Source: a virus
DNA length: 64,000 bases
Direction: 5' to 3' (one strand)
Virus record (IMG/VR): IMGVR_UViG_3300042387_000230
Location: 1 to 64,000 of that record
The notes under the pieces are model-generated. The model had not been told where the DNA came from. It made no database searches and worked only from the letters and a program-made list of their open reading frames with translations. Below, in pieces: positions 36,912 to 60,400 of the stretch. Position numbers and translations under genes: made by a program. How positions within the stretch are numbered: the stretch's first letter is position 1; every line of letters starts with the position of its first letter.

Positions 36912-39900
36912 TTAGTACGTTAACTTGTATGAGATTTGGTCTGCGTTTAGTCTCTGAAGCAGGTCAGTGATTTCCGCAGAACTCTTAGTTTTGCTTAGTT
37001 TAGTTATATCAATAACCATAATTTTATCCCTTTCATCCTGAGACTCGGCTAGGCTTGGGTAGTCTATAGTTTTGCGGTCCTCGTCCATTTCCACTGATGA
37101 CATAAACGCATATCCCTTTTTAGTCAGCTTATCGCTATGCAGGATCTTTTTGTCCGTTAGCTGGTTGGCAAAAGCTAGAAGTCCGGTAGCTAAATATCTA
37201 CGCTGGTACTCTTCTTTAGTCTCTATATTGGCAATATACACCTGATTGTCTAGCAAGGGCCCATCCTGTATGTCTCCCCATTCGGTACTCATACTCGCTA
37301 CGGCTTCGTCGGTGTTCCCAGCTAAATCATATGCCTTTACTTCTATGTAAGTCTGAATCTTTCCAGGCTCACCGTAGTAAAGTTCTTGTAGAGAAACAAC
37401 ACCTTCAAACCGGTACTGTCTACCATATCTGTCTTTATATGAAGCGGTCGTAGTGGTTTTAAAGTCACGGTAGTTAGGATTGTCGTATTCTTCAGTGATC
37501 GAGCCTTCCAGGTCTATTTTTAGACTCTCAGTGGCTTTATCCATTATATTATCTTCGCGCTTTTCAGGACGAGCAAAGTATGAACCGTAGTGCTCACGTC
37601 TAGTGGATTTTAGTTCTTTAACTCTATTAGAGTTCGATCCAAACTGCTTTTCCGCCTGCGCAATCATGTCTGCGTAAATTTGCATCATCTCTTCCTGGTA
37701 ATCAAGAAGAGGTATGCCATATGGTCCAGAAGTAAAGTCGTATGCTAGTTCTTTGTCTAGGTCTAGGTTCGGGTCAGCCGGGTCGAAAGGCTCCCCACCA
37801 AACTTCATTAGAGATGGTCTAGAGTCGGTTGGCTTTTCTGGCTTAGAAAGCAGGTTACCAAACCGTTGAGCATTTCTATCTACTATAACGTCGTCAACAG
37901 TAGCCGGATATTCTAGATACAATCCCTCTGGACTAGTTACACGGCTTATCGCTGTATATAGCTGTCCTGGAGCAAATGCTCCATCTTCTCCAAGGTCTAC
38001 CTTCAAGTTTTTAATAGTCTTACCTTGAAGCTTGTGAATAGTAGCTGCCCAAGCTAGCATCAATGGAATTTGAGTAAACGTAGCCTCAGTTATGGGGCTA
38101 AGCTTGTTTCTCACCTGGTTACTAATGGCGTCAACGCGAGAAGCAACGTTGTATCCCTTTTTCTCCCATTTTTCTGCACCTACATCATAAATATTGTCGC
38201 CTACCTTAACTCGTACAAAATTTTCTCCTAGGGCTACAACGGTCCCTATGGTTCCATTTACCCATCTGCGAGTAGGTGGTACTCCTTGGCCAGACTCATT
38301 GTCCGAAGCATCCTTAGCATTTTTTTCGCTATCGTTTCTGGTAAACATTACTCTAGCGCCCACCTTCAAATCTAACTGTACAGGGGACGGAAGGTTTTTA
38401 CCAAAGGCCTTGGCTCCGGCTCCGTTAAACTCCCCAGAGTAGGTTCTAGCCTCGGCATTGCCTAGCTTTCTCATTTCTTCCTGATTAATTTCTTGCGCTC
38501 GCTTAGTTCTAGCAGTCGCGTAGATTAGGTCATCTACGGACTCTGGAACGGTGCGCGATCCAGTAGCGTTCAAAAATTCAATATCATCCATAGAGAATCT
38601 TCCAACACGGATGTTGTTTAGGACTTTTTTAAATTCAGGGTCTGATTGACGGAACACTTGGGTAAGTTCATAGACTTCCAAAGGCTTGTCCATCCAGGCC
38701 CTGGCATCAAAGAAAAATTCGCTTCTATAGTTGTTTCTATTGTAAGAAATTGCCTTTTGATCTTCTTTGTCCACTACAGGAGGAAGCTGGTATACATCGC
38801 CAAAGCCAATAAACTGAACTCCACCGAATGGTACGAACGCTTTGCCTCTGACATACCTAAGAACTCTATCCATAGCGTCTAGTAGGTCTGCAGACACCAT
38901 CGACATTTCATCAACTAGAAGAGTGTCCATAGCTTTCAAGACACTTTCAACTTTGTCTCTATACTTTCCAGGCTTTGGCAGTAGCTTTTCTACGTCACTT
39001 AATCCATAGACTACTCCTGGAGTTAAGCCAAATAAGGAGTGAATTGTGACTGCGCCAACGTTTTCTGCCGCGGCTCCGGTAGGAGCTGCAGCGGCCACGT
39101 TTTTCTCAGAATTGTCTCGAATAAAATTGAACAAACGAGATTTACCCGTTCCAGCCTTACCCGTAATAAACATAGAATTATTGCTAGTTTCTACGTGATT
39201 AAACAAAGCTTGCTGCTCCGCTGACAGCTCTTGAATATCTTTCTCGGTCTCTTCTCTTTCCATGTCAGTAGGTACTTGTACAGGTGTACCATCCAAATTA
39301 TTTTTAGGTACGTACCCTTCTAATTTAGATTTGTCAAAGTTAGCAGGAATTTCAATGCCAGCTACTGGCTCGTCGTTAGCCATTCTTTTCTTTAGTAGGG
39401 CAGTAAGAAGTCTATTCTTTAGAACTCCAAGCAACTCGGCGTCTAGCCCCGGAAGCATGTCCCAGTAGTTCCTTGCATCCTGGTCAGAAATTACCCCCGG
39501 CTCTTGTATAATATCCTGCACAGTTCTAATATCATTTACCGTTGGGGGATTGACAGTCACCCTAGTTTCTACTGTAGGAGATGTATTTTCTTCTCCATCA
39601 GGGAACCTCATAAACTGAGGCCCCGAAGCGGGTACCTTAGTTCCGTTTAGGTAGTCTACAAATTGGTTTAATGTCATGTTGCCGATATTCTCAGGAACTG
39701 GAGCTACCTGACCTGGCTGAGTGTCTTCTATAGACTGGTTAGCTGCCCTTTTCTTACCAGGAGCAATTTTTTTAGCTTTTTCACCACTAATTTTTAAGAT
39801 GCGAAGTGCGTCAAACTTAGCTAAGTACTCTACCAGCTCTCGGGTTCCTGCCTTAGTCAAGAACTTACCTCTCACTGATTCTATAATTGCTCGGTATACC

Positions 39901-57400: not shown

Positions 57401-60400
57401 TTTTTGTTCCTGAGAGTCATCTTAGGTTTCAAGGTGCTGATATCAGTGATAGCGCCCTGAATTATTTTTCTGCCTTGAGCAGTAACTGCTCTTTCTCTCA
57501 GCGCATCGGCAAGCATTGCGTGCGTTTCATCTAGAATGGCTCTAATAATTCCTAAATCAATCTGTAGACCAGATTTTAGAATGGTAGCAACTCGAGCATC
57601 CTCGAGAATTCTTACATCTTCGTCTAGGTTCTCTTCTTGTACTGCGACTGGTCTGCCCTGCCCTACAGGGCTCATTAGTCTTTCGTAAGCTTGTTTATTG
57701 TTTGCCCACGTGTCGTAAGGCAAAATTAGTCCATAGATTGCCTCTACATACTTCCGCGCTCTAAGGTAGTCTTCACCACCGTCTATGTCAACTTTAGTAA
57801 ACGCAACGTAGGCATCAAACGCATTAACTAGCCAGTCTTCCTGACCTACTTTTTCAGGTCTAGGAGTGTAGCTCTCTAGAGTGAAGTTGTCGTCTTGGAA
57901 TGCACGCCTGACAGCCGCTTCAATGGCGTCCTGGTTTTTGTACCAATCTGGCAACTGCATACGGTCAATTGGGTACCCAAATAAAATAGCCTGGACTACG
58001 TTACCGCCAATGTTATCTGGAAGCAGTAATTTTTTGTCTCCTACGATGGCCTCTATAGGAAATACAGTGTGATACGGAGTTCCGTAAAAAATGCTAAGAT
58101 CGTTGCTTGCTATTTGTTCTCTGTCGTCTATAAGGTCGGGCTCGAAAGGCTTTGGTACAGGTCCGTAGAAAACTGGAACGTCATCCGCTTGATTGTAGGT
58201 CTCGCTGGTGCCGTCTTCAAACAATACAGCATAAAATCCATCTAGTTCACCAATGTAAGAAATGACCTTAGGCACGCCATTAACTACAACGCGATTGCCA
58301 ACCTTGAGAATACCTGGGTTGACGTAATCAACATTTAGTGGCGACTCTGCTTCCGGCTCCTCGGTTGAATCTTCAGGAGCTGGCTGGTCGGCAACTGGAG
58401 TAGGCGCTGGCTCGGCTGTAGGAGTGGGGGTAGCAGGAGCCGCGTTCTGTATCGGGCCGTCTTCTAGCTTTCGAGTAGGGACGTAGTTTTCAGGCACAGC
58501 AATGCTGCCGCGTATGCTCTCTGGAATCTTGTCTAGAATGTCGTCGATTGGCATCGAGTTGATGGTTCGATAGTCAAGCGCCGTCTGCCAGTAGCTGATT
58601 TCTCTAGGTCTTAAACTTTCGATTAAGTTTTCGCTTGCTTCTCGTGCAGTTAGGTCCGGCAGTTTACTAAGTATTTCTGCTATTTCTTTCTCAGACAATA
58701 GTCCAGGAGTGTTTACTACTCGCTCTATAGAAGACAGCTGACGAGGGTTAGCTCCGTCTTTACCTAAGTTGGTGTAGTATGTCAGTGGGTCTTGAGGCTG
58801 GTATTTGTCCTTGTACGGAGCTTCATCACCTTCGTTTATCCAGCTTTCTAGGGCCGCGCTTGTCATAGTGCGGAACTCTTCTTGGAAATTAGGGTAGTTT
58901 TTGTCCTGGTCATCTCCTTCGTCAATTAGATCTTGGAGTTTTCTATTTACAAGTATTGACTCAACCTTAACTATCTGAGAGGGAGTGGGTCGACGAGCGG
59001 CATCTACATCCGACTCCAAGAATTGAGGGACAGGCTCAAATTGGCCCTTCTTGTCGGCAACTTCCTGAGCTGTAATTTTGTCTTCAGCACGTCTGCCCCA
59101 GCCCCATGACGCGTTGATGTCCTTAATAATCTGCTCAACTTCAGCACCTGGCAGGTTGTAAAGGCTGTCAAATATTTCTTTAGCTAGACCCTCTTGGCCG
59201 GCTGGCGGAGTACGTTTTGCTAGCTGGGCCAGCACAATTTGTCGTCTGCCAGGGGCGGCTTTTCCAATGTACTTTGGATATTTACCGTCTGGAGATCTCT
59301 CAGGGTTTTGAGGCTGCGTAGAGTTGATGATGTCCGCAAGTGCGGCAGCTTCAGCTAAGGTGTAGTTTTCTGGATTCAAATACATGTCGTCAATTAGGCG
59401 ACCAATGCTTGGGTCATTGATAATGCTTCTATCGAAAGCCTGGTGGGTAGGCCCCGTAATTTGACGTGATAATTTGTGCTTAGTGTCATTTTTGTAAGGG
59501 CTTACGTAAGAAACTGGAGAATCGTCTGGGGAATTGCCAGCTTTCTCTAGACGATCTCTGTAATACTGAGCGTCTTCTTTAACTTTTGCCTTTAAATCTT
59601 CAAAGGCAACATCATCGCTTGGGGTAAATCGCATGAATGGCGGTCGAACACTGTCCATTCCTTCGGCGTCCCAGCTGACGGTCGGCAACTGATTGTTAAC
59701 AGAGGCAATGATATCTTTAACATCACTCCAGCTAAATCCAATACCGATTGGCTCCATGTGCGTAGCAGACGCGGTTAGGTCATAAACGGTGAACGCGTCT
59801 TCAGCAATGGATGGCTCGTAAAAAAGAATGTCTTGACCATTAATGTCGTCAAAGTTGTAAACAGGAACAACGCTTACAGTTGCAGGGCCAAACGTAACGT
59901 AGTTATTGCCGTCCTTGCTCTGATAGTGGTTGTCAATGACTTTACCCCAGTCCTCTGGAACGTCAACATCAGGGTCAACAGGTACGTACGGCTCTTCTGG
60001 AGTGTCCTCTACTTCTGGCTCTTCCTGAGGTTCTGGCAACTCAGCGACAGGGGTGCCAGACGTTGGCTCGTTCTCTGTGTCCGGGTAGTTGCGATCTTCC
60101 TGAGTAGCAAGTTGCTGAGTGGATGCCCAGTCTTGGGCATAACCAACTACTTCTTCCTGGCCGCGCTTGCTTGAGATGAGCTCGTAGACTGGCTTGTCCG
60201 GGTTTAGCTGGTCAGTGCCAAACTGGCCGATAATCTTTGCGCCAAACTTTTGCTGAGCTTCCGCAATGCGCTTCTGAAGTGCCTCGTCAGGTTTGTTGTA
60301 CAAGCTAGCCTGGTAGCCGTCGCCGGTAACAAAGTTGCGGTTCGGCTTGACTTTGCTGGTTAGGCCACTTACTGTAGCTGCGACCTTAGTTGGGTACCAG

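What the first reader, a model, noticed from the sequence alone, without database searches (positions are those of the whole stretch)
37798..59650. Short motif P-x-[LF]-M-x-F recurs at domain borders of both giant proteins
Seen in the 4577-aa protein: LQLMAF near residue 264, AAMSF 1768, LNLMKF 2138, RFMKF 2923, PMFMQY 3338, PQFMRF 3673, PSLMKF 4275, with variants at 1645 (PMFLF) and 2057 (MIKFM). Seen in the 3282-aa protein: PPFMRF 550, AQLMSF 1361, KMTRF 1373, PQFMAF 1690, PQLMRF 2656, LMLMAF 2810. Nearly all fall just before or after an enzymatic domain and within flexible linkers. Inference: a processing or docking signal, possibly cut by the capsid maturation protease, which would split one polyprotein into many effectors. 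I know of no described motif of this kind.
Basis: partly seen in the sequence, partly recalled or inferred. Interest (0 to 1): 0.92.

Follow-up and report, generated by a model that had tools for sequence, protein, structure and literature searches.

The report
Phage-private peptide tags between protein modules
Two giant proteins of an uncultured bacterial virus carry the same six-letter peptide between their working parts; related viruses carry a different peptide of their own there, repeated up to 18 times, which suggests a private code read by a matching, still unidentified factor, most likely one that cuts the giants into separate proteins.

Summary
The motif is real: [LF]MxF occurs 10 times in the two giants against 0.7 in shuffled sequence, and an unbiased motif finder ranks it first. 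It is one dialect of a wider pattern. The giants belong to an actinophage-like virion operon (portal, giants, S78-type protease, capsid). In at least nine related lineages, plus two weaker cases, the giants carry a short peptide repeated 3-18 times between enzymatic modules, but each lineage has its own: PxLMxF, [VI]EE[SM][SA], [IL]D[KR]MA, IEDM[AS], EQEMA, GPSPKEE, PSQNRE, GFAQxxG. Homologous borders carry different peptides in different lineages; each peptide is essentially absent from the other genes read on its contig; synonymous codons are scrambled; no tag of 50 tested lies inside a Pfam domain (9.9 expected). Many sites change together, which implies one trans-acting reader. The capsid maturation protease is an unlikely reader: it and the capsid protein lack the tags and instead share an unchanging [VIL][TV]A[ASG] motif. 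Every tagged contig tested encodes zincin-type metallopeptidases inside its giants; 1 of 17 untagged contigs does. Best guess: lineage-private processing sites cut by the giants' own peptidases; encapsidation or docking tags are the main rival. Reader and cutting are unproven.

The parts
36912..50645 (-). P0001, giant B, 4577 aa: RNase_T exonuclease, two HEYGH zincins, ADP-ribosyltransferase, ParB-like stretch, PIF1/Dda-like helicase, with tags between them
   Evidence: ORF; Pfam; PHROGs
51451..61299 (-). P0002, giant A, 3282 aa: conserved N-terminal region, RNase_T exonuclease, UvrD helicase, ArdcN, MPTase-PolyVal, with tags between them
   Evidence: ORF; Pfam; PHROGs
49833..49850 (-). tag LQLMAF (P0001 266-271)
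   Evidence: identical in sister phage G009
45330..45344 (-). tag variant AAMSF (P0001 1768-1772), before RNase_T
   Evidence: KPAAMSF kept in G009 in a diverged linker
44208..44225 (-). tag LNLMKF (P0001 2141-2146), after RNase_T and before the zincin pair
   Evidence: G009 has the variant LSLQRF
42216..42236 (-). degenerate, older-looking tag VISMPAP (P0001 2804-2810); G009 VISMASS, other lineages VEESSS, IDRMAP and EQEMA at the same place
   Evidence: alignment A1
41859..41876 (-). tag HRFMKF (P0001 2924-2929), before the ADP-ribosyltransferase
   Evidence: low-confidence linker in the model
40611..40628 (-). tag PMFMQY (P0001 3340-3345)
   Evidence: PMFMQF in G009
39603..39620 (-). tag PQFMRF (P0001 3676-3681), before the helicase
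   Evidence: PMFMKY in G009
37800..37817 (-). tag PSLMKF (P0001 4277-4282), after the helicase
   Evidence: PMLMKF in G009
59626..59643 (-). tag PPFMRF (P0002 553-558)
   Evidence: kept in L089, L090, L091
57193..57210 (-). tag AQLMSF (P0002 1364-1369), before RNase_T
   Evidence: replaced by VEESS, SEIDKM, IEDMS or IDRMID in other lineages
56209..56226 (-). tag PQFMAF (P0002 1692-1697), between RNase_T and UvrD helicase
   Evidence: replaced by IEEMA, PEIDKM or SIEDM in other lineages
53311..53328 (-). tag PQLMRF (P0002 2658-2663), after the helicase
   Evidence: VEESSS in L095
52852..52869 (-). tag LMLMAF (P0002 2811-2816), before ArdcN
42261..43928 (-). two HEYGH zincin-type metallopeptidase domains of P0001 (about residues 2240-2795), candidate readers
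   Evidence: HEYGH at 2380 and 2716; profile matches the catalytic domain of lethal factor at E 0.004; weak fold matches to zincins (model mean pLDDT 57)
51862..52197 (-). MPTase-PolyVal zincin domain of P0002 (3035-3146), candidate reader
   Evidence: Pfam PF18818, E 9e-29
32203..36858 (-). P0003, capsid maturation protease fusion, 1551 aa; S78-like domain about residues 845-985; carries [VIL][TVS]A[ASG] sites and no tag
30039..32069 (-). major capsid protein, 676 aa; conserved VTAAAEQ- and AITAGADIPG-type sites and no tag
   Evidence: position and homology to annotated capsid genes

Best explanation
The recurring peptide is one lineage's version of a lineage-private inter-module tag. In this group of phages the virion operon encodes two giant polyvalent proteins (chains of nuclease, helicase, antirestriction, ADP-ribosyltransferase and peptidase modules, presumably carried in the head and injected). 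The flexible linkers between modules carry a short peptide that is near-uniform within a genome but different between lineages. SHOWN from sequence: enrichment, restriction to the giants, position outside known domains, occupation of homologous borders by different peptides, selection on the peptide and not on the DNA, and replacement at many sites together. INFERRED: one trans-acting factor reads all copies in a genome. INFERRED with less certainty: reading means proteolytic cutting that splits each giant into its modules, and the cutters are zincin-type metallopeptidases built into the giants themselves. The capsid maturation protease is an unlikely reader.
For: Chance excluded. Same borders, different peptide in each lineage. 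10-18 copies in the two giants of G001, G002, G003, G004, G006 and G008 and none in the other genes read on those contigs. Each tag pattern is almost absent from giants of other lineages. Codons of tag copies vary about as freely as codon usage allows. 0 of 50 tags inside Pfam domains, 9.9 expected. Tags follow clades on a protease tree; PSQNRE and GPSPKEE phages are sisters with P0003 86% identical, yet all 12 recognised sites differ. Zincins (MPTase-PolyVal or the HEYGH pair) in 11 of 11 tagged and 1 of 17 untagged contigs (Fisher 6e-7, not corrected for kinship). Zincin presence used as a predictor led to tags in three of four further lineages. Published: zincin MPTase domains were proposed to autoprocess polyvalent proteins, and P1 DarA and DdrB are cut around packaging (PMC5512222).
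Against: No cleavage is shown. No single zincin family is present in all tagged phages: G006 and G015 lack MPTase-PolyVal, G001-G004 lack the HEYGH pair. G011 and Racecar have zincins but no tag was found. The zincin association could reflect shared ancestry or domain richness. The tags are chemically very unlike each other, which is a lot of specificity change for one type of peptidase. The same paper notes that N4 virion RNA polymerase, which has an MPTase domain, is packaged uncut.
Confidence: 0.42

Rival explanations
1. Docking or encapsidation tags: the peptide binds a partner inside the procapsid (scaffold part, capsid floor, portal or a chaperone) many times along each giant, so that two very long proteins are loaded and held; partner and tag co-evolve. 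The logic resembles T4 capsid-targeting sequences or encapsulin cargo peptides (general knowledge).
For: Lineage-specific, many copies per chain, in linkers, only in proteins of the head operon. The capsid protein has a fast-changing N-terminal segment, residues 101-250, 31-57% identical outside the sister phage.
Against: The protein encoded after the capsid gene is 72-85% identical between phages with LMxF, [VI]EE[SM][SA], IDKMA and GPSPKEE tags, and 75-88% identical to untagged G016. The capsid protein outside residues 101-250 is 59-82% identical between them. Tags sit at nearly every module border and not at the ends, which docking does not require.
Confidence: 0.27
2. One reading: tags are cut by the capsid maturation protease (P0003, S78 type) and the giants mature with the head.
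For: The protease gene is next to the giants; phage prohead proteases do cut head cargo at a shared motif, e.g. SPN3US gp245 after AXE (PMC10052503).
Against: P0003 and the capsid protein carry no tag in the tagged contigs read and share an unchanging [VIL][TVS]A[ASG] motif, 7-9 copies in P0003 against about 1.5 expected, conserved also in untagged phages. In known systems the protease and capsid share the motif with the cargo. Untagged relatives have the same protease.
Confidence: 0.13
3. No reader: tags are relics of domain shuffling, short shared linkers copied when modules are inserted, or sequence repeats kept for recombination.
For: Modules are exchanged between lineages (ArdC-MPTase against DnaG-Toprim near the C-terminal end of giant A).
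Against: Synonymous positions are near random among copies that are identical as peptides; homologous borders change peptide although the adjoining exonuclease module stays.
Confidence: 0.06

Closest known systems
Polyvalent proteins of phages and conjugative elements (Iyer et al. 2017, PMC5512222)
   Same: Long multidomain phage proteins with ArdcN, MPTase-PolyVal, ADP-ribosyltransferase, helicase and nuclease modules; autoprocessing by the zincin domain was proposed there.
   Different: The passages read describe no recurring border peptide and no lineage-specific code, and the word linker does not occur in the text. Here every genome has its own tag, in giants of up to 6848 aa.
Prohead-protease maturation of head and ejected proteins (SPN3US gp245, PMC10052503; also T4 and phiKZ)
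   Same: A phage protease cuts several head proteins at one short motif.
   Different: There the protease, capsid protein and cargo share the motif and most cuts remove N-terminal propeptides. Here the tags are absent from protease and capsid, internal, between enzyme modules, and change between relatives.
Polyproteins of RNA viruses with a cognate protease (general knowledge)
   Same: One short site repeated at module borders and read by a protease from the same genome; site and protease co-evolve.
Encapsulin cargo-loading peptides and T4 capsid-targeting sequences (general knowledge)
   Same: Short peptides in flexible parts of cargo, matched to the shell.
   Different: Those are usually terminal and few; here up to 12 internal copies per chain, between enzyme modules.

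Membership tests
Phage polyvalent proteins | Many enzymatic or antirestriction domains in one chain | tested here: met
   Pfam and PHROGs
Phage polyvalent proteins | ArdC-type and/or MPTase-PolyVal modules | tested here: met
   PF08401 E 4e-18 and PF18818 E 9e-29 in P0002
Phage polyvalent proteins | Packaged and injected with the DNA | not testable with these tools
   Only gene position between portal and capsid protease is known
Prohead-protease (S78) substrates | Site shared with the protease and/or the major capsid protein | tested here: not met
   No lineage tag in P0003 or capsid protein; a different conserved motif there
Prohead-protease (S78) substrates | New N-termini at the site in virions | not testable with these tools
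   Needs virions and mass spectrometry
Viral polyproteins with a cognate protease | One site sequence repeated at module borders within a genome | tested here: met
Viral polyproteins with a cognate protease | Cognate protease encoded by the same genome and co-varying with the site | tested here: inconclusive
   Zincins in all 11 tagged contigs tested but not one family; HExxH modules of giant B are unusually diverged in G001, MPTase-PolyVal is not
Viral polyproteins with a cognate protease | Cleavage at the site | not testable with these tools
Zincin metallopeptidase (HEYGH domains of P0001) | HExxH helix, downstream glutamate, zincin fold | tested here: inconclusive
   HEYGH and a downstream conserved E in the alignment; profile match E 0.004 to a lethal factor chain; fold match weak, poor model

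The most novel reading that the evidence does not exclude
A private, fast-switching peptide code: each phage lineage marks the module borders of its injected giants with its own peptide, read by a matching factor of its own, so that only self giants are cut (or loaded). Switches are completed at ten or more sites in concert within the divergence of sister phages. Such a code could isolate co-infecting relatives from each other's processing or packaging machinery.
Probability: 0.3. Interest if true: 0.95.

Novelty: new variant of a known kind. Interest (0 to 1): 0.84.

Why it matters
How phages deliver chains of thousands of residues with many enzymes through a narrow tail, and whether they are cut first, is open. 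If the tags are cleavage sites, this is a set of orthogonal protease-site pairs. If they are loading tags, it is a set of orthogonal capsid-cargo pairs.

Tried and rejected
BLOSUM-seeded 6-mer clustering: noise except for PEIDKM. Exact gapped-pattern counts: did not find the window motif because it is degenerate. Capsid maturation protease as reader: see rivals. Protein encoded after the capsid gene as reader: it looked incongruent in G001 (44% against 86%), but it is similar between phages with different tags or none, so its replacement looks like ordinary recombination. ArdC-MPTase as reader in the G001/G002/G003 trio: rejected, 90% identical across the switch. DNA repeats: rejected by codon scrambling. 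QSFxH in G024 and GYYPGH in G025/L076 look like parts of repeated domains, not tags. Named cultured relatives (DSL-LC01, Microbacterium A3Wally/Cece/Pumpernickel, Arthrobacter Racecar/Atuin, Gordonia GodonK): no tag found, although Racecar has one PALMSF. Tblastn of the HEYGH zincin pair against 50,697 phage records: no match. The AlphaFold model of P0001 2120-3150 is poor (mean pLDDT 57, 6 sequences) and serves only as weak support for linker position. Literature searches found no description of such tags, in a library that lacks most subscription journals.
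Full report
What was checked. The two giant ORFs are real, both on the minus strand (P0001 4577 aa, P0002 3282 aa). They lie in a head operon: portal (63517-65235, seen in the 3 kb beyond the window), a 733-aa protein, P0002, P0001, the S78-type protease fusion P0003, the major capsid protein and tail genes. The order matches Actinomycetia phage DSL-LC01, Microbacterium phages A3Wally, Cece and Pumpernickel, Arthrobacter phages Atuin and Racecar and Gordonia phage GodonK. 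The host of the window phage is not known; an actinobacterium is likely from its relatives.

The motif beats chance. [LF]MxF occurs 5 times in each giant against 0.44 and 0.20 in shuffles, not reached in 2000 shuffles. A de novo finder that knew nothing of the motif returned it as the best 8-mer of the two giants, with score 188 against 153-155 in three shuffles. KMTRF is not part of the signal, because PSMKFF is found at that place in phages that use other tags.

Related giants. Searches of IMG/VR with P0003, P0001 and P0002 gave 95 loci. In close orthologues of P0002 (53-66% identity) the motif copies sit at the same places. In more distant orthologues the same borders carry another peptide, consistent within that genome. 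At the border before the exonuclease: AQLMSF (window), VEESS (L095, L100, L102), SEIDKM (L094, L099), IEDMS (L093), IDRMID (L092). At the border after it: PQFMAF, IEEMA, PEIDKM, SIEDM. The six-residue cores can be laid side by side without gaps (PQLMRF / PEIDKM), and the window keeps one degenerate older-looking site, VISMPAP, aligned with VEESSS, IDRMAP and EQEMA. So the dialects of this branch probably share one ancestor with an hxxMA core (inference).

Whole contigs. When contigs of tagged lineages were read as fully as they are held, the tag was found in both giants and in no other predicted gene: [VI]EE[SMF][SA] 10 copies, [IL]D[KR]M[AS] 14, PSQNRE type 12, GPSPKEE 16 (in giants of 3351 and 6848 aa), GPSPK[EQK]E 18, GFAQxxG 15. 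Each pattern is almost absent from the giants of the other lineages. The patterns were written after seeing the data, so the shuffle values flatter them; but 16-18 near-identical heptapeptides hardly need statistics. The codons for the same peptide differ between copies about as freely as codon usage allows, so selection holds the peptide.

Place. In nine giants with Pfam annotation, 50 tags fall outside every domain where 9.9 would be expected inside (domains). In an AlphaFold model of P0001 2120-3150, a poor one (mean pLDDT 57), the tags at 2143, 2804 and 2926 all fall in stretches below 50.

Evolution. In a tree of P0003, tags follow clades. PSQNRE (G001) and GPSPKEE (G002) phages are sisters with a GPSPKxE phage (G003) as outgroup; P0003 of the sisters is 86% identical, yet all 12 recognised sites in G001 carry the other peptide. 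Concerted change of many scattered sites is what a single reader in trans would cause.

Who reads it? (a) The capsid protease: P0003 and the capsid protein carry no tag in the tagged contigs read, but share a [VIL][TVS]A[ASG] motif, 4-6 times enriched and conserved in place and sequence whether or not the giants are tagged. That resembles the V-x-A/S preference of herpesvirus assemblins (general knowledge; that it is this protease's own site is my inference). An enzyme whose other putative sites stay constant is unlikely to have changed specificity many times. (b) Zincins: MPTase-PolyVal or the HEYGH pair is found in 11 of 11 tagged contigs and 1 of 17 untagged ones (Fisher 6e-7, not corrected for kinship). 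With zincins as predictor, tags were looked for in four further lineages and found in three: EQEMA in G015, MGMA[IL]P in G014, [ND]MA[VI][PS] in G012/G013, and not in G011. The G014 and G012/G013 cases rest on 3-6 copies and are weaker. No one zincin family covers all tagged phages, and MPTase-PolyVal does not follow the switch in the G001/G002/G003 trio, whereas HExxH modules of giant B are unusually diverged in the switched lineage. (c) Capsid parts: the protein encoded after the capsid gene is similar across phages with different tags or none, so it is not a matched partner.

Mechanism. My preferred account: the giants are made as polyvalent chains, the tag between modules is recognised by a peptidase of the same genome, probably one inside the giants, and the modules are released before packaging, in the head or after injection. 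This extends the autoprocessing idea of Iyer et al. 2017 (PMC5512222) by proposing the sites. The main alternative is that tags dock the chains in the procapsid. Sequence alone cannot separate the two.

Verdict. The claim of a capsid-protease site is not supported. As a system this is a variant of known kinds (polyvalent proteins, polyprotein processing) with a feature that I have not found described: a lineage-private, concertedly evolving border tag.

Noticed in passing
30039-32069 and 32203-36858 (minus), and the same genes in all relatives examined: Capsid protein and protease P0003 carry 7-8 [VIL][TVS]A[ASG] sites each (expected 1.3-1.5), conserved in place and sequence across lineages: a candidate constant cleavage signal of the maturation protease.
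   Followed up: partly
P0001 residue 46, P0002 residue 197, and similar stretches in P0003: RD..G[RQ]FAEMG sits near the N-terminal part of both giants and of relatives; P0003 has RNALGRFAKQG. It could be a shared entry or packaging module.
   Followed up: no
P0001 and P0002, several linkers: A helical module of about 60 aa (RRL..........LP.L....G..I..LD.A.LK.RMAN) recurs several times in both giants, often near tags.
   Followed up: no
61303-63504 (minus): The 733-aa protein between portal and giant A starts with a ferritin-like (Dps-type) domain, PF00210 E 2e-10: an odd thing to find in a head operon.
   Followed up: no
G001 contig, gene after the capsid gene (67235) against G002 and G003: This gene is replaced by a divergent allele (44% against 86%) while its neighbours stay 77-92% identical; G015 also has a divergent one.
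   Followed up: partly
P0001 1834-2026 and P0002 1414-1600: Both giants carry an RNase_T (DnaQ-like) exonuclease module; the two align with each other at about 30% identity and are flanked by tags.
   Followed up: no
G002 contig 15727-36270: One open reading frame of 6848 aa fills about 20 kb of this phage contig; sisters have 6251 and 6144 aa.
   Followed up: no
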